Below, piece by piece: positions 3,441 through 12,466 of a stretch of DNA of 21,724 nucleotides. The position numbers and the translations under genes are program-made. The notes under the pieces were generated by a model. The model saw only the letters and a list, made by a program, of their open reading frames with translations. It was not told where the DNA came from and ran no database searches. Source of the stretch: a virus; the IMG/VR virus record IMGVR_UViG_3300037468_000790, positions 1 through 21,724 of that record. The stretch is one strand, 5' to 3'. How positions within the stretch are numbered: position 1 is the stretch's first letter; the number at the start of each line of letters is the position of its first letter.

Positions 3441-3567
3441 CAAGCTCCTCCTCGCGTATGCGCTTCAGCAACGCGGCCTCATATGCACGGCCTTCGACCT
3501 CGAGCCCCTGCTCAAACTCCGTCCACACGTCGTCGGGAGTGCGCTCGTCAGTACTTGTAGCTGCCAC
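3427..3567 (-). CDS. Small acidic helical protein, 46 aa
   Basis: The frame starts at GTG 3567 with an AAGGA ribosome-binding site 8 nt upstream, and overlaps the end of the nuclease-like gene by 20 bases. The product is acidic and helical: TPDDVWTEFEQGLEVEGR, then ALLKRIREEELDAAD. The clear ribosome-binding site, amphipathic pattern and lack of low-complexity translation make it likely to be real. I recognise no family. Its position straight after the nuclease-like gene would suit an immunity or accessory partner, but that is speculation from position alone. Confidence 0.6.
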   Translation of the reverse strand: MAATSTDERTPDDVWTEFEQGLEVEGRAYEAALLKRIREEELDAAD

Positions 3568-4249
3568 GATAGCTTTCCTTGGCTTGTGCGGACGACCACC
3601 CTACGCGCAGATGAAATCCCTCCATCACGTGAACGTCTACCGTCTTCGTCGCGGGATTGATGATCAAGCCCATGGTCGCGCCTTTGACCAAACGGCCCAG
3701 GCGCTGGCCCACCTCACGAACGGCGGCATGCTTGCGCTCGAGAATCGCCTGCATCTTCCGCTCGTTGTGCGCGGCCTTCGTGCGCTCAGAGACCCGCGCG
3801 AGCCACGCGGCTTCCTTCGGTCCGGGCTGTCCGATTGTAGCGCGCCACTGCTGAGCCTGTAGGCCGTTGCTCGCGAGACCGGCCTTCACTTCGTACACAC
3901 GGTGATCTTCCACCAGGTCCACGGGAAAGTTGTTGCGCTCTACGTTCAGAGTGCGAGCGTCCTTGAAGCCCTGGTCCTGTAAGAAGCGCACAGCCAGCTC
4001 CTCGCCGAGGCGACCCGTTTCCAGCTTCGAGGGGCGCTCACCAGTAGGCGCTTCCATGGCCCGCCGCGAGGTGGACTTGAGAGAGCCTCCGCCGCCTCGA
4101 GTGGTCCACTGATTGCCGTGGAACTCGTGACCAGGAAGGTCGCCCGCCGCTCGTAACTCGTCTGGCATCTCATCCGGCTCAAGAAGTTCCGCAAACAATG
4201 CGCGGTCGTCCATCTCACCGTTCTCATCTACCAATGCGAACTCAGGCAC
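3548..4249 (-). CDS. GHEFHGNQWT-motif protein with PD-(D/E)XK-like nuclease domain
   Basis: This 233-residue protein starts at GTG 4249, overlapping the MuF gene stop by 8 bases. Residues 1-35 form an acidic leader. The shared motif GDLPGHEFHGNQWT is at 36-49, followed by a Gly/Ser linker. From about residue 79 the pattern GRLGEELAVRFLQDQGF, then Asp111 (NFPVDLVED), then Glu120-Val-Lys122 (VYEVKAG) matches a PD-(D/E)XK restriction-endonuclease-like core of the UPF0102/RecB-nuclease type, with Glu84 as a possible further metal ligand. The rest is basic and helical, ending in a beta-like tail. I infer that a DNA nuclease-like domain is carried as motif-tagged cargo. The fold call rests on a short motif set; activity and target are unknown. 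Confidence 0.7.
   Translation of the reverse strand: MPEFALVDENGEMDDRALFAELLEPDEMPDELRAAGDLPGHEFHGNQWTTRGGGGSLKSTSRRAMEAPTGERPSKLETGRLGEELAVRFLQDQGFKDARTLNVERNNFPVDLVEDHRVYEVKAGLASNGLQAQQWRATIGQPGPKEAAWLARVSERTKAAHNERKMQAILERKHAAVREVGQRLGRLVKGATMGLIINPATKTVDVHVMEGFHLRVGWSSAQAKESYRGSYKY
4103..4144 (-). repeat. GHEFHGNQWT motif copy 6 (nuclease-like protein)
   Basis: This copy encodes GDLPGHEFHGNQWT, residues 36-49 of the nuclease-like protein. It is preceded by DELRAA, the same L/M-R-x-A lead seen before most other copies, and followed by Thr-Arg-Gly-Gly-Gly-Gly-Ser. Confidence 0.95.
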
Positions 4250-5879
4250 CCTTCTTCTCCTTCAGCTTCTTGTCCAGACGGGCCTTGAACTCCGTCGCGG
4301 CGGGCGTCCCGAAGTGCATGACCGCGGACCACGAGGTGCCGAGCATCGCGGTCTTACCGGCAGGGTGGTCCGCCACGCGAGAAGGGCCGTCGGGACCAGC
4401 GCTCAGGCGCAGCAACTCAGCGCGCTCTGCGAGACGTGCAGGAGTCAGAGCCATATTGCTATTCCTGAACTTCCGTGCGAGAGCAGAATAAAAAGCCAAC
4501 CCTTCCTGCTCGAAGCCGAGTTTGCCCCACGCGTATCCGCCCACGTTGAGGTTCGCCTGGAGCCTGACCTCGTCCACGCCCATCCTCTCGTACAGCGCGA
4601 CACTGTCCACGAGCATCTTCGTCGCGACACCCTCACCCTGGCGCGCGAGCGGCAGCGTGAAATACTCGTGCTCTGCGCGCAGGACATCTCCGTCTCGTTC
4701 GAAAACCCGCTGGATGTGCGCCGCGCTCTCGGATCCATGAACCACGTCCAGCTTCACGGTAAACTTCTCGAGGCTGAGTCGCAGGCTCACTACTGGATCC
4801 GTTCCCCCTACCGCCTCGGCCATGATGTCAGACGTACCACCCAGCAGCGCTTCGGTCTTTTCTCGGCTCAAATCCAAAACACTCGCTGCCGTTTCTAAAA
4901 ACTGCTCGCGCGATGTTGGATCCCCGTCCAAGTCATAGAACCGCGCGTCCTTAATAGATTTGAAAGAACCAGATCCCCCCGAACTACCCGCACCCTTGCC
5001 GGTCCACTGGTTGCCGTGGAATTCGTGTCCGGGGAGGTCACCGAGCCAGCGCGCCGCCGCGCGCCGCGGGAACGTCAGCACCGTCGTGCAGCGACAGTTG
5101 GGATGGAGCGGCGGATTCTCGATCTCCGTGCCGTCCTCGTCCGAGAACGGCTCCTCGAGATCAGCCGTCTCCTGGTCCATCGCCTCGCAGAGCGGGCAGA
5201 GCCTGTCGTCCGGCGTGACAATCCACTTGCGGAGAGTGCCGTCCGGCAGCTCGCCCGCGTCGCGCGCTGCGCGCCATTCAGCACGTTGGCCCTCGTTCGA
5301 GGCGCGCATCGTCTCGGTCCGCGCGATGAGCCTACCGCGGTCCGCGAGGAGCTTGTCGGCGTACGCCTGCACGCGTCGCTCCATCCACTCCGTCGTGACA
5401 TCCACCGGCACACGAATCGCGACGTTTCCGGCCCACAGCTTCGCGCCGGGGCTCGCGAGGATCTCTGCGCGCAGCGCCCGCACCGCCTCCGCTTGGTCGG
5501 AGCGCAGACCGACGATGGAGCGGAGCAGGCGCGCGGCCTCGGCCGGCGGGATGCCCTGCTCGAAGATCGCAGCAACCGTCTCGCGCAGCGCGGCACGCAT
5601 CTCAACCGTCGTCTCCGTGACGAGCCTCGCAGCGTGTGCTCGCGCCCATGCGACGGCCCGAGGATTCGTCAGCTCGAAGGAGCCGCGGAGTGGGCCGGCC
5701 TTCGGGGTCGGGCGCTTGGCGAGGCGCAAATGCCCTGCCTGCCCGACCTTAAGCGCATACCCCTCATACTTGGCAAAGCGATCCGCCCAGCTAAAGGTAG
5801 TGGACGCGAATGGGCGCACGCCTAGCTCGACGTCCAGCTCCTCTTCGTACAGTGCTGCGTCCCTCGTCACGGTCCGCAC
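4242..5879 (-). CDS. Mu gpF-like head morphogenesis protein fused to motif and GNAT domain
   Basis: This 545-residue protein starts at GTG 5879, immediately after the upstream stop. Residues about 60-270 are Mu gpF-like: a helical region, then TRTETMRASNEG-type sequence, then the metal-binding signature Cys228-x2-Cys231 (LCPLCEAMD) and His259-x2-Cys262-x-Cys264 (PPLHPNCRCT). Family members are minor head proteins linked to portal and head assembly. The shared motif is at 280-293, followed by a Gly/Ser linker. A C-terminal domain resembles a GNAT acetyltransferase: the acyl-CoA loop RQGEGVA (413-419), a helix (TKMLVDSVALYERMG) and GGYAWGKLGF (447-456). The last 70 residues are basic and helical. 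Fusion of MuF to enzyme or toxin domains is known from phages; here the joint is the same peptide used in three neighbouring genes. Confidence 0.88.
   Translation of the reverse strand: MRTVTRDAALYEEELDVELGVRPFASTTFSWADRFAKYEGYALKVGQAGHLRLAKRPTPKAGPLRGSFELTNPRAVAWARAHAARLVTETTVEMRAALRETVAAIFEQGIPPAEAARLLRSIVGLRSDQAEAVRALRAEILASPGAKLWAGNVAIRVPVDVTTEWMERRVQAYADKLLADRGRLIARTETMRASNEGQRAEWRAARDAGELPDGTLRKWIVTPDDRLCPLCEAMDQETADLEEPFSDEDGTEIENPPLHPNCRCTTVLTFPRRAAARWLGDLPGHEFHGNQWTGKGAGSSGGSGSFKSIKDARFYDLDGDPTSREQFLETAASVLDLSREKTEALLGGTSDIMAEAVGGTDPVVSLRLSLEKFTVKLDVVHGSESAAHIQRVFERDGDVLRAEHEYFTLPLARQGEGVATKMLVDSVALYERMGVDEVRLQANLNVGGYAWGKLGFEQEGLAFYSALARKFRNSNMALTPARLAERAELLRLSAGPDGPSRVADHPAGKTAMLGTSWSAVMHFGTPAATEFKARLDKKLKEKKGA
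5001..5042 (-). repeat. GHEFHGNQWT motif copy 5 (MuF-GNAT protein)
   Basis: This copy encodes GDLPGHEFHGNQWT at residues 280-293, exactly between the MuF zinc-type region and the GNAT-like domain. The lead differs (AARWL in place of LRxA). Several third codon positions differ from the copy at 4103. Confidence 0.95.
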
Positions 5880-7298
5880 TCAGAACACCCCAATCTGCTC
5901 GACGGTGATGATGTTCACCGTCTTCCAACGCCGGTTGCCGGTCTTCTGGTCCTCGAAATTGATACGGTCCTGCGTCCGTGACACCACTCGAAACCGGCCG
6001 GCGCTTGACAGCTCACGATCCGCGGAGACCGAGATGTGGTACCCGTGAGACGGGCCGAGCGGATGAACTGAGCGGTCCTTCGGCGTCTGCATGACTGGCA
6101 GCAAGATGTGTTCGTTTCCCTCTGCGGCGCGTTTGACATGCTCCAGCGCCTTCACGTCCAGCATCTTCGCACCTGGCTTGACGACGAACAGGTTCTTCCC
6201 CGCGTAGGTCAGCGCCACGTCTTGGTCCATGGTGAACGCTGTCGGCCCGCGAAGCTCGAACTCGTCTCCTTTTGGTGTGACGGACGCGCCGCGATAGACC
6301 TTGACGTCGGTGGATGGCACGTCGCGAACCGACGCGTAATATCCGGATGCCTCTGCGGCGAGCTGCTCCACGCGCTCCCTGGGCAACAGTGAAACCAATG
6401 CGTTTCCGGTCGGGTCGTCGCGATCGCGCTGCTGCCGGGCGTGCTGGGCAGCGACGTGCTTATTCGCCATGATCTGGTCCGTCGACTTACCCTGCGCGGC
6501 CATCTCCACTATCGCGCGCACAGCCAATCCGGTCCCCTGATCGAGGGACGCGTACTCAGTCACAACGTCCGCAGCGCCACGCATGTCGGAGCTCCGTTCA
6601 TACTCCTCCACGGCGCGAGCCATCGCGACCTTGTTCTCCGCGACGGACATATCTTGAATTGCCGACGGGCGGGGGACGACATTGACGCCTCCATTTCCCG
6701 TCCACTGATTCCCGTGGAACTCGTGGCCGGGGAGGTCGCCGGCGGTGCGCAGTGAACTGTGCCCCTCCAAAACCTTGTAATCGGCCACACGAACTGATTC
6801 CTTCAACTTGAAATCACTCTTGGAAATCTGGTCCTGCAACACTTGATGTATGTCGGTGGGAAGTACCTTGAAACTCACTACAATTCCAGGCTCATCATGA
6901 ACCTGAGTACTCGCGTAATAGTCCGCCGTCTCTCGGTCCGTCGTGAACACATTGGCACGGTTAGCTTCAATCGTCTTAGTGACTTGGAATTTCGCGAATC
7001 CCTCTTTGCTCATTCCGCGATAAAATGTTGTGTTGGGATCCACTCCTCCTTTCCATTGCTCTTCTTGTCCACCGGAGCCACTTGTCCACTGGTTCCCGTG
7101 AAACGGATGCCCTGGACCCTCACCCGCCGTGCGGAGCGCACTCTTCGCCGCGAGCTCACGTGGTTTCCCTGTGTCAATGGCTAGGGCCTGCATCTTCGCA
7201 CTTTTCTCATTCTCGTGATTACCGACCAAAGAGCCACGCAAGAAAACGGACCACACCTGCCACCCACCCACTTTGCGTAGCTGAACAGATGTATTCAT
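5880..7298 (-). CDS. Double motif protein with two ADP-ribosyltransferase-like domains
   Basis: This 472-residue protein starts at ATG 7298, overlapping the upstream stop (ATGA). Residues 1-45 form a small domain (GGWQVWSVFLRGSLVG). Motif copy one (59-72, variant GEGPGHPFHGNQWT) and a Gly/Ser linker precede an ADP-ribosyltransferase-like domain: Arg94 in FYRGM, Thr119-Thr120 in NVFTTDRETADYYA, and Glu167 as a possible catalytic residue. Motif copy two (187-200) precedes a helical region (215-325) and a second ART-like domain: Arg336 in VYRGAS, AFTMDQDVALTYA (354-366), and Glu396 in GNEHILLP. The usual Gln/Glu two residues before the catalytic Glu is Gly394 here, so activity is uncertain. ART domains move ADP-ribose from NAD+ onto targets, and phages such as T4 inject ARTs with their DNA. 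Cargo status is my inference from motif and location. Confidence 0.78.
   Translation of the reverse strand: MNTSVQLRKVGGWQVWSVFLRGSLVGNHENEKSAKMQALAIDTGKPRELAAKSALRTAGEGPGHPFHGNQWTSGSGGQEEQWKGGVDPNTTFYRGMSKEGFAKFQVTKTIEANRANVFTTDRETADYYASTQVHDEPGIVVSFKVLPTDIHQVLQDQISKSDFKLKESVRVADYKVLEGHSSLRTAGDLPGHEFHGNQWTGNGGVNVVPRPSAIQDMSVAENKVAMARAVEEYERSSDMRGAADVVTEYASLDQGTGLAVRAIVEMAAQGKSTDQIMANKHVAAQHARQQRDRDDPTGNALVSLLPRERVEQLAAEASGYYASVRDVPSTDVKVYRGASVTPKGDEFELRGPTAFTMDQDVALTYAGKNLFVVKPGAKMLDVKALEHVKRAAEGNEHILLPVMQTPKDRSVHPLGPSHGYHISVSADRELSSAGRFRVVSRTQDRINFEDQKTGNRRWKTVNIITVEQIGVF
6699..6740 (-). repeat. GHEFHGNQWT motif copy 4 (second copy in ART-like protein)
   Basis: This copy encodes GDLPGHEFHGNQWT at residues 187-200, preceded by SSLRTA. 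It lies between the first ART-like domain and the helical region leading to the second. Confidence 0.95.
7083..7124 (-). repeat. GHEFHGNQWT motif copy 3, variant GEGPGHPFHGNQWT
   Basis: This is the only copy with amino-acid changes: Asp-Leu to Glu-Gly, and Glu to Pro. P-G-H-x-F-H-G-N-Q-W-T is retained. It is preceded by AAKSALRTA, closely matching AAKSVLRIA before the copy at 7793, so similarity extends upstream of the motif in these two. Confidence 0.93.
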
Positions 7299-8776
7299 TT
7301 TTTCACGCCAATCCCAGTAGCAACAACGGCACGTATGGTATCAGCTCCTGACATGTAAGCCGCCGTTGCGCGATGGTAGCCGTCAACAATCTCGTAGCGC
7401 CCGTTGGCCTTGAGCACGACCTTAATGGTGGCTTTCGACGCCTTGCCCTCTAGCTTAGCCTTAATACCCCCTGGGAAAACCTTACCTTGCAGACCGGCAA
7501 CTAAGAGGCGCACCGGCACGTCACGAGTCTCCAGAGGTACCTTACGATCGCGACTGGCCCCAACGCGCAATGAATGTGGAAACGGATGAACAACCCCCTC
7601 TTTCCATTGTTCCTGGGTCGGCCAACCCTTCGTGTCACCAGCATACGCGGCGACACCATTCAATGCGGCTAGAGCCTCCTCACGATTGGAATAACGCTCC
7701 AGAGGCGACGCTATAACTTTCTCTGGAAAATCAAACTGCCCACGCGACGACGGTTCTGGCGGGAAGAAAGTAGAGACATTGCCAACACCAGTTGTCCACT
7801 GATTCCCGTGAAACTCATGCCCAGGCAAGTCACCTGCTATGCGCAGCACGCTCTTCGCCGCGAGCTGCGCGCCTTTCAGGGCGACGCCCACTAGGACCGG
7901 CTCCACCTCGCGCGCGAAGGTCGCCGCGAACACGCGCACCGCATCCTCGGCGACGGTCTCGGACTTGCCGGCGGAGAGCTCGGACTCGAGGCGATCGGCC
8001 GCATGGCGCAACCTTGGCCAGGACTTGTCGGCGAAGTGCCCCGCCGTGCGGAGTGTGCCCAGATCTTCAACCCCCACACCAAGCAATGCTTTTAGCTTAT
8101 ACTCTCTACCTGTGTCTTCTACATCTGCTCCGTGGGAAATGATTGATTTCCAGAAACGATTGGCATCAGGTGAGCGAGAGTCATGTTGACTCGCGATACC
8201 TGCGAATCCCTTCTTCTTCAAGTAGCCATGGACTTCTTTTAGAAGAGTAAACCCGGTGCCCTTCTGAGCCACCTCCATTGAAGTGATGTACGCCCAATCA
8301 TTTCCCAAAGAAGTCTCTAGTCGACGACCTCCAGGTGTAGCTGTTTCCACCTTCAGATAACCACCTTCGCCCGGCAATCTGAAGGTCAACGCAGGTATAC
8401 CACGCAAGGATTCGGTTTGAGAAACTGTAATATCGTGGCCCAGGACGTCACCACCGGCTCCGCCACCGGTCCACTGGTTCCCGTGGAACTCGTGCCCGGG
8501 CAAGTCGCCAGCAGCGCGCATTTCAGAATGACGTACGCCCCACGCCCCGATGCACTGCCCGGCGTTCTCGCCGTCCTCTACTCGCGGGTGCTGTGACTCC
8601 TCCCACTCGGCGAGAGAGCGCGCCAGCCCCGGCCCACCCAGCGCATGACGCGCGAGCTCAGCCGCGCGCAGGAAGGCCCTGCGGACGGCTCCTTCGGCGC
8701 GGGAGGCGACATCGAGGAGCTTGCGCCAGCTCTTGTCGGCTGCGACGCGCGGAACGAGCGTGAGAAGGGCGCTCAT
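7295..8776 (-). CDS. Double motif protein with GNAT-like and ParB/sulfiredoxin-like domains
   Basis: This 493-residue protein begins at ATG 8776, overlapping the portal stop (ATGA). An N-terminal helical segment contains ADKSW (13-17). Motif copy one (90-103) and a Gly linker lead to a GNAT-like domain: WAYITSMEVAQKGTG with acyl-CoA loop QKGTG (171-175), then a helix (LLKEVHGYLKKKG) and ANRFWKSI. A second ADKSW-containing helical segment starts at 249, followed by motif copy two (315-328). The C-terminal domain is ParB/sulfiredoxin-like: VPVRLL, Gly/Lys-rich strands, then YEIVDGYHRATAAYMSGA with Asp465-Gly-Tyr-His468-Arg469. Such folds bind nucleotides and occur as CTPases, nucleases or kinases. 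The gene is thus two tandem units of helical segment, motif and enzyme-like domain. The location after the portal suggests a head- or portal-associated protein; function is inferred. Confidence 0.78.
   Translation of the reverse strand: MSALLTLVPRVAADKSWRKLLDVASRAEGAVRRAFLRAAELARHALGGPGLARSLAEWEESQHPRVEDGENAGQCIGAWGVRHSEMRAAGDLPGHEFHGNQWTGGGAGGDVLGHDITVSQTESLRGIPALTFRLPGEGGYLKVETATPGGRRLETSLGNDWAYITSMEVAQKGTGFTLLKEVHGYLKKKGFAGIASQHDSRSPDANRFWKSIISHGADVEDTGREYKLKALLGVGVEDLGTLRTAGHFADKSWPRLRHAADRLESELSAGKSETVAEDAVRVFAATFAREVEPVLVGVALKGAQLAAKSVLRIAGDLPGHEFHGNQWTTGVGNVSTFFPPEPSSRGQFDFPEKVIASPLERYSNREEALAALNGVAAYAGDTKGWPTQEQWKEGVVHPFPHSLRVGASRDRKVPLETRDVPVRLLVAGLQGKVFPGGIKAKLEGKASKATIKVVLKANGRYEIVDGYHRATAAYMSGADTIRAVVATGIGVKK
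7793..7834 (-). repeat. GHEFHGNQWT motif copy 2 (before ParB-like domain)
   Basis: This copy encodes GDLPGHEFHGNQWT at residues 315-328, preceded by AAKSVLRIA. It differs from the copy at 8468 at several synonymous third positions while the peptide is identical. Confidence 0.95.
8468..8509 (-). repeat. GHEFHGNQWT motif copy 1 (before GNAT-like domain)
   Basis: This copy encodes GDLPGHEFHGNQWT at residues 90-103, preceded by SEMRAA and followed by a Gly-rich linker. It is the first copy in the direction of transcription, just after the portal gene. Confidence 0.95.
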
Positions 8777-10161
8777 GCCGAAGGCTCTGGAGGAGCATTT
8801 GGGCTCTGCCCACTGGCAATCGCCCGAGCCTTCTCCTCGCCCGCCTGCTTCTCCTCTTCGATCTTCGCCAGCTGCTCCTTCGTTAGGCGCGACCAGCCGA
8901 GCACGCGGTCGCGGATCTCCTCGGGCAGGACGATCGTTCCGCCGCTCTTCTTGTTGAGGTCGGCCAGTGCGCCGGCGACACCCGCCTTCTGGTCGAGGGT
9001 GAGCTCCTCGAACTCCGGCCAGCGTACGTCATACTTCTCGTCGTCTGCCGGAGGCAGCGCGCCACGCTCGATTAGCCTGTCCACAAACTGGCGCACGAGC
9101 GGCGTGGCGAACTGTTCCCTGCGGTCGCCGACGCGGTCGTCCCATGCCTTCGCGTCCTGCGTCGAAGCGAGCTCTCCGCGCTCCGAGCCGAGCAGGATAC
9201 GCTGCGGGATGCCGGTCGCGCCGCTGATCAGCGACACGATGCCCGTGATTTGGTTTACGAAGTTCGCAACGTCGGAGCCGAGAGCCTGAACGGTCGCGCC
9301 GCGCAGCGCCATCGTCCGCCGCATCCCCTGGGCGAGCTCGTCCGCCTCCTCCTTGAGCTTAGTGAGTTGCGCGGCCTCGAACTTCGTATCCTTATCGATG
9401 CTGTAGACGTGACCTTGATTCGCGCGCAACCAGAACGCCTCGGCACCTCCGCCCACGACCTTGTCGAGGTCGTCGAGCCTGTTCCACACGCGTAGCAGAT
9501 GCGGTTTGCCGATGACCTTGTTGTCGAGGACGTTGTGTGCGGCGTGCAGAACGCGCGACCAGTGCAGCCGGCGCGAGACCTGCTTCCTCTTGCCGACAGA
9601 GGCCGCGCTCAGCGCGTAGAACTGCGGCTGTCCGAAGCGTGGGCTCGCAGGGTCCTCGTCGTACGAGTCGATCTTCAAGGAGTCCTGCCCATAGGGCTGG
9701 AGGTAGAGGATGCCCTCTTGCGAAGACATCTTCGGCAGCTCGCCGGCAGGGTCGCCCTCAGCGCCGAGAACGAGGCCCGCATACTCACCCTGACCTGCAA
9801 GCACGTCCAGCCGGTAGAGCTCGACCCAGAGGTAGAGGCGCTCGTTCAGGTCGGCCATCGCCTGCTCGAGGTCGGTCGTGACCTCGGGATCTTCGTCGTC
9901 GATGATCTCGACGCCTACGCGCCACGTCTCCTTCGGATACGCCTCCACGAGCCGCGCGGCGATGTCGCCCCGCTCGTAGCGTGCCATCAAGTCGCGGTAT
10001 GTCACCACGCGCCTGTAGCCGAGCGCTCCGTACAGGTCGCGCCGTCCGCTGAAGGTCAGCCCCGCCATGCCCGCGATCTGTGCGCGCGACACCATGTCCG
10101 AGGCGAAGCGCAAAGCCTCAACTTCGTGGATCGCGGCGGTCACGGCCTTGGCGCGAGGCAT
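8773..10161 (-). CDS. Portal protein, DUF1073 type
   Basis: The 462-residue product matches the DUF1073-type portal family, the dodecameric ring at the capsid vertex through which DNA enters and leaves. Supporting features are the N-terminal ALGYRRVVTYRDLMARYER segment and WRVGVEIIDDED, a clip-like LYLQPYGQDSLKI strand region, and above all the stretch near residues 315-345 containing SGATGIPQRILLG and GELASTQDAKAWDDRV, a hallmark of this family. The C-terminal 45 residues are a charged helical tail ending in a Pro-rich sequence. Length is normal for the family. ATG 10161 follows directly on the stop of a 39-residue gene, and the stop overlaps the next gene (ATGA). The neighbouring terminase and MuF genes fit the standard order. 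Confidence 0.92.
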   Translation of the reverse strand: MPRAKAVTAAIHEVEALRFASDMVSRAQIAGMAGLTFSGRRDLYGALGYRRVVTYRDLMARYERGDIAARLVEAYPKETWRVGVEIIDDEDPEVTTDLEQAMADLNERLYLWVELYRLDVLAGQGEYAGLVLGAEGDPAGELPKMSSQEGILYLQPYGQDSLKIDSYDEDPASPRFGQPQFYALSAASVGKRKQVSRRLHWSRVLHAAHNVLDNKVIGKPHLLRVWNRLDDLDKVVGGGAEAFWLRANQGHVYSIDKDTKFEAAQLTKLKEEADELAQGMRRTMALRGATVQALGSDVANFVNQITGIVSLISGATGIPQRILLGSERGELASTQDAKAWDDRVGDRREQFATPLVRQFVDRLIERGALPPADDEKYDVRWPEFEELTLDQKAGVAGALADLNKKSGGTIVLPEEIRDRVLGWSRLTKEQLAKIEEEKQAGEEKARAIASGQSPNAPPEPSA

Positions 10162-10281
10162 CTACTTGTATCGCTTCAAGGAAGGAATACCGGAGTGTGC
10201 CTTGACGATATCAGTGAGATCAGGAAACGCTGATTCAACAGTTTCCGGCTTGGCCTCCTCCCCGTCTCTGACTCGAGTCAT
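10162..10281 (-). CDS. Small protein between terminase and portal genes, 39 aa
   Basis: The 120 bases between TerL and portal form a complete frame. Its ATG (10279-10281) overlaps the TerL stop (TAATG) and its TAG abuts the portal ATG with no gap. The product is soluble and charged: an acidic, Glu/Pro-rich start, then VESAFPDLTDIVKAHSG, then a basic end (IPSLKRYK). A GGGAGGAGG stretch within the gene cannot serve its own start, so translation probably depends on coupling to TerL. I recognise no family. Roles at the portal-terminase interface are possible but not shown. Confidence 0.7.
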   Translation of the reverse strand: MTRVRDGEEAKPETVESAFPDLTDIVKAHSGIPSLKRYK

Positions 10282-11777
10282 TACCAGAGCACCTCTAGTT
10301 GTGGCCCACCGACATCTGTCACAGGCGCAAAGGCTAGCATGACCGCCTCCGCTCTGTTAGGCGAGGGCACGCCGCGTCGTTTCGCATCGTCCTTCGATTC
10401 GATCAAGATCTTGCCAGCCGAGGTACGCTTATAGCGCAAGGACACGAGTTCTGCCGCGGTGTCCTCGTCGAGGGGGTCAAGGTCTACCTCCCCGCTCTCA
10501 AAGCGTTCACGCACGCCCCACCACAGTTCAGCCTTGAGGTTCGCGAACGTCTCAGCATCTCGCGCTTGCTCACCCACACTTACGCCCACGAAGGGCGCGT
10601 CGAGGACCTTCTCCTGGGCCAGCTCGATGCTGCGGTCGTAGATACCTTTGCCGATGCCGATCTTATCAACTTTGACCGACGTAGCGCCCGTCTGCCTTCT
10701 CAGTGTAACCACCTTGCCGCACGTCTGCATCGTGTCCGGGTTATGATCCTCGTGGATGAGACGCACGACGGGGCCGCGCCGGTGTGCTACGGTCGAGGAG
10801 TCCCCGCCCGCACCGACGTCTACGCCTAGCTCGTTAGGTTCACTCGGAGCAAGTTCGCGCTCCATCGCTGCTCGTACCCACACGAACGGAATCAACCCAT
10901 TCTCGAGGGAAGCGCGCGGAAACAAGCCCAACACTTTGCTTTGCCAAAACGGGTGCGTGTCTGTCGGGTCGATGCCCTCAGGCGGCACGACACGCTTGTT
11001 GTCGGCCGTCCAGCGCCAAGCCGGCGCCCACTTGCGCCGCTTCTCTTCCACGTACGTACGACTGATGAGCAAACCCGCAAGATCCTTTGGAATTAGTTCT
11101 CCCGTAAAGGCCGGTGTGTCAAACGCGCCTACTTGAATCACGTGCCACCCACTGCCCGGCTTGCAAAGGTCAGCAAACTCGGTCGTAGGATCATCAGGGT
11201 TGCCAATCGCGAGCGCTTTCGATTCCTCGTTAGCAATAAGCGAGTCGGCCGCATCCCACAACGGGCCGCGCACGCCGCACGCTTCATCGAGAGCTACAAG
11301 CACCCGTCTTGCATGGATGCCCTGAAAGGCGGCCGGATCATGCTCGTCTGGCTTTCGCCCATAGGCTACGAGTTCCTCTTTGCCGCTAGTACTCTCAAGG
11401 TGCCACTCTGTCTGATTCGTCCGTCCGGGCAAGTCACCGCGAGAGTGCGCACGGTTGATTTCGCGCCACAGGATGGCCTTAACCTGCGGGCCCGTAGGCG
11501 CGGTCGTAACGACAAAGGCCTCGCCAGGCACATCCGTAGAGATCCACCAACAGATCGCCACCGCTGTAATGAACGACTTGCCGATGTCGTGACAACTCTG
11601 CACCGCAACGCGACGATGATCACGCAGCGCATCGAGGACTTTACGCTGGGCAGACCAGAGCTTAACCCCCAGGACGTCCTCCGCCCACGCTACCGGGTGC
11701 TGGCGATAGAAGCGACGAAGAAGCTCCTGCTCTAAAAATTGCGCCTCGTCCTGAATCAGGGCGAGCTCGGCGCTCAA
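10281..11777 (-). CDS. terL: Terminase large subunit (DNA-packaging ATPase/nuclease)
   Basis: This 498-residue protein packages phage DNA into the prohead. The N-terminal ATPase shows a Walker A-type loop, VQSCHDIGKSF (59-69, Lys67), and a Walker B segment, RVLVALDEACG, with Asp164-Glu165. VVTTAPTGPQVK (89-100) is typical of phage terminases. The C-terminal nuclease has Asp320 in ELGVDVGAGGDSS and Asp371 in VDKIGIGKG, the RNase H-like acidic residues that cut DNA at the start and end of packaging. The start is TTG 11777, overlapping the upstream stop (TTGA at 11774-11777). No in-frame ATG lies close enough to be preferred. It follows a putative small subunit and precedes a 39-residue gene and the portal. 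Confidence 0.95.
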   Translation of the reverse strand: MSAELALIQDEAQFLEQELLRRFYRQHPVAWAEDVLGVKLWSAQRKVLDALRDHRRVAVQSCHDIGKSFITAVAICWWISTDVPGEAFVVTTAPTGPQVKAILWREINRAHSRGDLPGRTNQTEWHLESTSGKEELVAYGRKPDEHDPAAFQGIHARRVLVALDEACGVRGPLWDAADSLIANEESKALAIGNPDDPTTEFADLCKPGSGWHVIQVGAFDTPAFTGELIPKDLAGLLISRTYVEEKRRKWAPAWRWTADNKRVVPPEGIDPTDTHPFWQSKVLGLFPRASLENGLIPFVWVRAAMERELAPSEPNELGVDVGAGGDSSTVAHRRGPVVRLIHEDHNPDTMQTCGKVVTLRRQTGATSVKVDKIGIGKGIYDRSIELAQEKVLDAPFVGVSVGEQARDAETFANLKAELWWGVRERFESGEVDLDPLDEDTAAELVSLRYKRTSAGKILIESKDDAKRRGVPSPNRAEAVMLAFAPVTDVGGPQLEVLW

Positions 11778-12124: not shown

Positions 12125-12220
12125 CAAAAAATTGCCGTCATAGACCCGTCGTAACCCGAAAGTCTCGTTACACCGAAGGTTACTAGTCAGGTTTTAGTTT
12201 ATATTGTTGATATTATTATA

Positions 12221-12247
12221 GTTATATAAGTTATAGTAGTTATAATA
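12221..12247 (+). repeat. Three tandem 9-bp AT-rich repeats, GTTATAxxA
   Basis: Consecutive 9-mers GTTATATAA, GTTATAGTA and GTTATAATA share the core GTTATA. A degenerate fourth unit (ATTATTATA) precedes them at 12212-12220. Period and AT content resemble an iteron or DNA-unwinding element. Confidence 0.75.
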
Positions 12248-12310
12248 GAAAACAATTGAAAAGCACAATTTGTGAAGTCGGCCTAGGGCATTTTTCCAGT
12301 CTAATAGAAA

Positions 12311-12328
12311 GCTATAACCGCTATAACC
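12311..12328 (-). repeat. Two perfect tandem 9-bp repeats, GGTTATAGC
   Basis: The plus strand reads GCTATAACC twice without a gap. Its complement, GGTTATAGC, contains the GTTATA core of the array at 12221-12247, here in the opposite orientation. A single further GTTATAG lies on the plus strand at 12378-12384. Confidence 0.8.
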
Positions 12329-12466
12329 AGTCATGTTCGCCTGCCTGCAAAGTATTGAATCTACAGACTTTACTATCGTTATAGTTTTGAGATTCCCGAC
12401 CGAACCAAAAACGACGAATAACCTGGTAACCGCTGTTTTTACTGGCACTCCTAGGCATTTGTAAGC

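What the first reader, a model, noticed from the sequence alone, without database searches (positions are those of the whole stretch)
5880..7298. Two different ADP-ribosyltransferase-like domains in one phage head-region protein
Seen: two separate Arg-Gly plus Thr/Tyr-Ala signatures (FYRG with FTTDRETADYYA; VYRG with AFTMDQDVALTYA), each after its own motif copy. The second has Glu396 but Gly at the usual -2 position. Known: ART active sites use Arg, Ser/Thr and Glu. Inferred: a bifunctional effector with two targets, or one active and one decayed domain.
Basis: partly seen in the sequence, partly recalled or inferred. Interest (0 to 1): 0.65.

Follow-up and report, generated by a model that had tools for sequence, protein, structure and literature searches.

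The report
Phage effector modules behind shared tag
This virus gene encodes two small domains that resemble ADP-ribosyltransferases (protein-modifying enzymes), and each follows a copy of a short peptide that, in about 100 groups of phage sequences, sits in front of many different predicted effectors beside the head-building genes, so the peptide may be an undescribed label for proteins that ride in the virus head.

Summary
The gene at 5880-7298 (minus strand, 472 aa) has two YRG ... F[TS]xD...A..YA signatures, each after its own GHxFHGNQWT copy. ART1 (residues ~88-180) is supported: it scores far above shuffles and non-ART families against a DRAT-like phage ART family, and its model, built on that family's alignment, matches ART-superfamily folds in the PDB. 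ART2 (~325-472) has the same signature and profile support but no usable model. Neither has the ExE of that family.

The larger find is the peptide. GDxxGHxF[HR]GNQ[WY]T occurs six times in four adjoining genes here and in 265 distinct ORFs of about 100 phage contig groups, up to eight times per protein. What follows it is effector-like (ART, HipA, Acb1, 2H, GNAT, ParB, RelA/SpoT, Zeta, Top1B). Copies within one phage share an amino-acid dialect while their codons are randomised, so selection acts on the peptide. Modules swap exactly at its borders. It lies next to, or is fused to, portal, MuF and DarA/DarB-like proteins. I found no description of it. Best reading: a head-cargo tag on injected effectors. 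The packaging role is inferred, not shown.

The parts
5880..7298 (-). The gene of the finding (P0001, 472 aa): leader - tag - ART1 - tag - helical region - ART2
   Evidence: overlaps the stop of 7295-8776 and abuts the start of 4242-5879
7083..7124 (-). Tag copy 1, GEGPGHPFHGNQWT (residues 59-72)
6759..7037 (-). ART1, about residues 88-180; candidate residues R94, T119/T120, Y127/Y128, E167
6699..6740 (-). Tag copy 2, GDLPGHEFHGNQWT (residues 187-200)
5883..6326 (-). ART2, about residues 325-472; candidate residues R336, T356, E396 (G394 at -2)
   Evidence: single-sequence AlphaFold model unusable
7295..8776 (-). P0002: N-terminal region - tag - GNAT-like module - tag - ParB-like module
   Evidence: ParB, weak; GNAT read from sequence only
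8471..8509 (-). Tag in P0002 (first)
7796..7834 (-). Tag in P0002 (second)
4242..5879 (-). P0003: MuF head-morphogenesis domain - tag - GNAT-like module
   Evidence: PF04233, E 1.2e-9; phrog_3517, E 2.6e-32
5004..5042 (-). Tag in P0003
3548..4249 (-). P0004: short leader - tag - PD-(D/E)xK-nuclease-like module (FPVDL...VYEVKAG)
   Evidence: nuclease read from sequence, weak YraN hit E 0.039
4106..4144 (-). Tag in P0004
8773..10161 (-). Portal protein, directly upstream of the tagged genes
   Evidence: PF06381, E 3.7e-30
10281..11777 (-). Terminase large subunit
   Evidence: phrog_2, E 2.5e-29

Best explanation
The gene encodes a two-module cargo protein of the phage head. Each module is a small ADP-ribosyltransferase-fold domain, and each is prefixed by a ~14-residue tag, GDxxGHxF[HR]GNQ[WY]T. 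The tag marks cargo for the head: a head or portal component of the same phage recognises it, the protein is taken into the prohead, and it enters the next host with the DNA, where the ART modules modify host molecules or consume NAD+. Shown by computation: the two signatures, the ART fold of the ART1 model, the tag's recurrence, selection on the peptide, genome-specific dialects, effector-like cargo, head-gene neighbourhood and module swapping at tag borders. Inferred: packaging, a trans-acting reader of the tag, injection, catalysis, and any cleavage at the tag.
For: ART: window-free profile E 5.6e-6 with two hits in place. hhalign ART1 score 33.3 against a shuffle maximum of 16.8, ART2 28.6 against 17.8. 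Of 34 families from the same pool only the one holding this ART scores high (37.3 and 28.2; all others at most 21.5). Members of that family reach PF07357 DRAT at E 5.3e-9. ART1 model pLDDT 72, pTM 0.64; the 18 best PDB chains are DUF952 and Tpt1/KptA proteins, followed by Arr and PARP14, all ART-superfamily folds (superfamily assignment from own knowledge). Tag: 390 deduplicated copies, 101 contig groups, G, H, F, G, N, Q at 98-100%. Identity at variable positions 0.451 within a genome, 0.268 between, permutation maximum 0.308; codon identity at conserved residues 0.493 against 0.500 expected from own codon usage. Cargo nearly always C-terminal of the tag; single-domain proteins have a 20-40 aa leader, then the tag. 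Cargo families. Neighbours terminase, portal, minor head. Regions before the first tag match portal, MuF, head maturation protease, DarB-like. The tagged Rb1 'internal head protein' matches DarA at E 1e-23. Flanks 93-97% identical with an unrelated module between two tags (L037/L047/L049).
Against: No direct evidence that any tagged protein of this kind is in a virion or is injected. ART2 has no confident model. The ART1 model rests on an alignment of distant relatives, which may steer the fold, and no PDB match reaches E 0.001. A broader family profile scores the protein at only E 0.022. No single head gene was found in all tag phages: MuF in 19 of 39 contigs, S78 protease in 2 of 39, DUF2213 in 4 of 39, though the contigs may be fragments. 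P1, which packages Dar proteins, lacks the tag in the 30 kb read.
Confidence: 0.55

Rival explanations
1. The tag is a proteolytic maturation site: tagged polyproteins enter the prohead and a head protease cuts at each tag, releasing separate effectors.
For: Up to 8 tags in one 2,926-aa ORF, median spacing 234 aa; tags follow portal and MuF domains; P1 DarA loses an N-terminal ~9 kDa piece to the prohead protease (PMC12810830).
Against: S78 prohead protease found in only 2 of 39 tag contigs; the tag does not resemble the T4 [IL]xE site (own knowledge).
Confidence: 0.3
2. The tag is only a conserved linker between domains, with no binding partner.
For: It lies between domains and is often followed by Gly/Ser-rich stretches.
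Against: Near-invariant GH.F.GNQ, genome-specific dialects with saturated codons, and presence as an N-terminal prefix in single-domain proteins.
Confidence: 0.12
3. The tag DNA is a recombination site for shuffling modules, and the peptide is incidental.
For: Modules are swapped exactly at tag borders between otherwise 93-97% identical proteins.
Against: Synonymous positions are randomised within a genome (0.493 against 0.500 expected), so no DNA sequence is conserved; the six window copies differ at many third positions.
Confidence: 0.04
4. One or both ART-like domains are catalytically dead and act as binding or decoy modules.
For: Neither keeps the family's ExE: ART1 has L165-K-E167, ART2 has G394-N-E396.
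Against: Arg, Thr and a Glu are kept at plausible positions in both; ARTs without ExE can be active on other targets (own knowledge).
Confidence: 0.3

Closest known systems
Polyvalent proteins of phages and conjugative elements (Iyer et al. 2017, PMC5512222)
   Same: Large multidomain phage proteins encoded among virion genes, rich in ARTs, predicted to be packaged and injected; several ART copies per protein.
   Different: The word linker does not occur in that paper, and a full-text search for the tag's core peptides returned no phage paper. P0001 does not match Pfam ART-PolyVal.
Head-packaged phage ARTs (T4 Alt; MuF-ART fusions; PMC9503650)
   Same: ART gene next to portal, terminase and MuF, with an inferred virion role.
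   Different: Here the ARTs are separate tagged modules in a gene between portal and MuF, not fused to MuF; no match to ADPrib_exo_Tox.
Dinitrogenase reductase ART (DRAT, PF07357) and its phage relatives
   Same: Best profile match for both domains.
   Different: The ExE of that family is missing in both; whole-family similarity is weak (E 0.022).
P1 Dar proteins (DarA, DarB, Hdf)
   Same: Internal head proteins released into the host; a tagged Rb1 protein is DarA-related and some regions before the first tag are DarB-like.
   Different: The part of P1 read here lacks the tag.
T4 capsid-targeting sequence of internal proteins
   Same: Short N-terminal peptide that directs cargo into the head (the function proposed here).
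   Different: Different sequence; the T4 signal is N-terminal only and ends in a gp21 cleavage site (own knowledge), whereas this tag recurs inside polyproteins.
MuF polymorphic toxins (Jamet et al. 2017, PMC5576092)
   Same: Variable effector domains attached to head proteins, including ARTs; the neighbour P0003 is MuF-tag-GNAT.
   Different: P0001 has no MuF domain; the words motif and linker do not occur in that paper.

Membership tests
ART superfamily (ART1) | Split beta-sheet ART fold | tested here: met
   Model pLDDT 72, pTM 0.64; best PDB matches are ART-superfamily folds, TMq 0.36-0.54, best E 3.9e-3. Caveat: alignment of distant relatives.
ART superfamily (ART2) | Split beta-sheet ART fold | tested here: inconclusive
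   Single-sequence model pLDDT 40.6; profile support only.
ART superfamily (both) | Catalytic Arg/His, Ser/Thr/Tyr and Glu in place | tested here: inconclusive
   R94/T119/E167 and R336/T356/E396 fit by position; geometry not examined.
ART superfamily (both) | NAD+ consumption or ADP-ribosyl transfer | not testable with these tools
   Needs an assay.
Pfam ADPrib_exo_Tox PF03496 / ART-PolyVal PF18760 | Score at the family model | tested here: not met
   No match in the window at E <= 10; no Pfam hit for the isolated domains.
DRAT-like phage ART family | Family profile match | tested here: inconclusive
   E 5.6e-6 with the narrow profile, 0.022 with the broad one.
DRAT-like phage ART family | ExE motif | tested here: not met
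   ExE is near-invariant in the family; ART1 has L-K-E, ART2 has G-N-E.
Polyvalent proteins | Several effector domains in one polypeptide encoded among virion genes | tested here: met
   Two ART-like modules between portal and MuF genes.
Polyvalent proteins | Packaged in the virion and injected | not testable with these tools
   Needs virion proteomics.
MuF polymorphic toxins | MuF domain in the same protein | tested here: not met
   No MuF in P0001; it is in the neighbour P0003.
T4-type capsid-targeting sequence | N-terminal peptide ending in an LxE/IxE cleavage site | tested here: not met
   The tag consensus has no such site and recurs internally.

The most novel reading that the evidence does not exclude
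GDxxGHxF[HR]GNQ[WY]T is an undescribed sorting tag that one class of phages uses to load effector modules into their heads, read by a partner that coevolves with it in each phage. Any domain behind the tag is then a candidate injected anti-defence or host-takeover effector, including the two ART modules here and the Acb1-like and 2H modules elsewhere.
Probability: 0.5. Interest if true: 0.82.

Novelty: new variant of a known kind. Interest (0 to 1): 0.63.

Why it matters
Phages are known or predicted to carry effectors in their heads, but how cargo is chosen is known for few phages. A short conserved peptide that prefixes many unrelated effector domains would make that question testable in a mass spectrometer and would let one list injected effectors straight from sequence. 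At most 19 of the 90 shorter modules behind the tag match any Pfam family at E 0.01, so it would also be a way to find new anti-defence proteins.

Tried and rejected
Direct relatives: none for either ART segment in viral contigs, none for the ART2 half in genome contigs, none for the whole protein in isolated phages; the whole-protein search of viral contigs found only tag matches. Pfam, PHROGs and NCBIfam: no domain hit for P0001; DUF433 at E 0.028 taken as chance. PDB sequence search: only antibody chains, chance. ART2 model without an alignment: unusable; an ART2 alignment was made, but the second job went to ART1, whose size fits the family. ART-PolyVal profiles: ART1 at E 0.32, not better than reversed controls, although hhalign with one such family gave 80%. 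Exo-toxin-type family from the same pool: no match. S78 protease or DUF2213 as the universal reader: not supported. Plasmids: no convincing tag. One bacterial match of the tag pattern (L145) looks like chance.

Full report
What is there. The window is the whole of one IMG/VR virus record of 21,724 bases, probably a fragment. On its minus strand run terminase large subunit (10281-11777), portal (8773-10161), then four tightly packed genes: P0002 (7295-8776), P0001 (5880-7298, the finding), P0003 (4242-5879) and P0004 (3548-4249). Neighbouring genes overlap by a few bases or abut. P0003 is a MuF head-morphogenesis protein. P0001 is therefore a head-cluster gene between portal and MuF. A distant relative (L338, portal 48% identical) has terminase, portal, a 220-aa ORF where MuF would be, and a next ORF that reads like DUF2213, with no tag-bearing ORF between (the last two were named by eye), so the tagged genes look like accessory insertions.

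The two ART-like domains. P0001 matches no family in Pfam, PHROGs or NCBIfam and has no relatives outside the tag in the collections searched. ART modules from tagged phage proteins gave a family whose members match DRAT (PF07357) at up to E 5.3e-9. A profile of that family without the window finds P0001 at E 5.6e-6, with one hit on each signature. The two hits are weak alone (11 bits each), and a broader profile drops to E 0.022. In hhalign both domains score well above 40 shuffles each, and among 34 families made from the same pool only the one holding this ART stands out. With 48 relatives in the alignment, ART1 folds at pLDDT 72, and its best PDB matches are ART-superfamily folds: DUF952, Tpt1/KptA, then Arr and PARP14. 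The model puts E167 just before the last strand, a plausible place for the catalytic Glu. ART2 could not be modelled. Neither domain keeps the family's ExE, so the target is probably not arginine; this is inference.

The tag. P0001 to P0004 carry six copies of GDxPGHEFHGNQWT or close variants. After removing duplicates there are 390 copies in 101 contig groups, with G, H, F, G, N and Q at 98-100%. They lie in 265 distinct ORFs: 182 with one copy, the rest with up to eight, median spacing 234 residues. The tag is nearly always N-terminal to a domain (16 of 265 last copies lie within 60 residues of the ORF end, some of these probably cut by contig ends). In single-domain proteins it follows a leader such as MSGFTTNELLYPLTKGDVSGHEFHGNQWT.

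Selection and dialect. Within one phage the copies resemble each other at the variable positions (0.451) much more than copies of different phages do (0.268; permutation maximum 0.308), while codons at the conserved residues agree no more often than chance under the phage's own codon usage (0.493 against 0.500). The copies are thus old or independent at the DNA level, and the peptide dialect is held by selection, as expected if something in the same phage reads it.

Cargo and context. Behind the tag are MuF, several ART families, HipA and PI3/4 kinases, Acb1, 2H phosphoesterases, topoisomerase IB, pentapeptide repeats, GNAT, RelA/SpoT, Zeta toxin, M91 and another peptidase, ParB, NUDIX and HEPN. 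Neighbouring genes are mostly terminase, portal, minor head and head morphogenesis. Regions before the first tag match portal, MuF, head maturation protease and DarB-like proteins. In the isolated Xanthomonas phage Rb1 the tag sits in a protein annotated 'internal head protein' that matches DarA at E 1e-23; P1 DarA is annotated as an internal head protein released on infection (see also PMC12810830). Between closely related phages a whole module is replaced exactly between two tags while flanks stay 93-97% identical. ORFs with two or more ARTs are common (27 of 114), and two groups share the tag-ART-tag-ART layout of P0001.

Reading. The likeliest account is that P0001 is a head-carried pair of ART effectors and that the tag marks head cargo. 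Packaging, the reader of the tag, and whether it is cut are not shown. No single candidate reader was found: MuF is in 19 of 39 tag contigs, DUF2213 in 4, S78 protease in 2. The closest described concepts are polyvalent proteins, head-packaged ARTs and P1 Dar proteins; in the open-access library I found no description of the tag. Subscription literature was not searched.

Noticed in passing
L334 / L044 (862-aa ORF), L081, L116: A second peptide, PRDExG[QR][FW][ST]xGG, occupies the same kind of position between modules; one protein has three copies of it plus one GHxFHGNQ tag. Possibly a second class of the same tag.
   Followed up: partly
L283, L312 and about 120 other viral loci: A DRAT-like ART family is widespread in phage contigs, with up to four copies in one ORF, often without the tag.
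   Followed up: partly
L142 (Rb1), L143 (Ideonella), L146 (Hydromonas): The tag is followed by a conserved His-rich helical-looking stretch (SG.AV.AS...AHR.A.HAH) shared by these proteins.
   Followed up: no
window 3548-4249: P0004 looks like a tagged PD-(D/E)xK nuclease (FPVDLVEDHRVYEVKAG).
   Followed up: no
window 7295-8776 and 4242-5879: GNAT-like modules in P0002 and P0003 and a ParB/sulfiredoxin-like module in P0002, read from sequence with weak or no database support.
   Followed up: partly
window 12194-12448: An ORF ends in an odd Tyr/Asn/Ile run (YYNYYNLYNYNNINNIN), an AT-rich patch.
   Followed up: no
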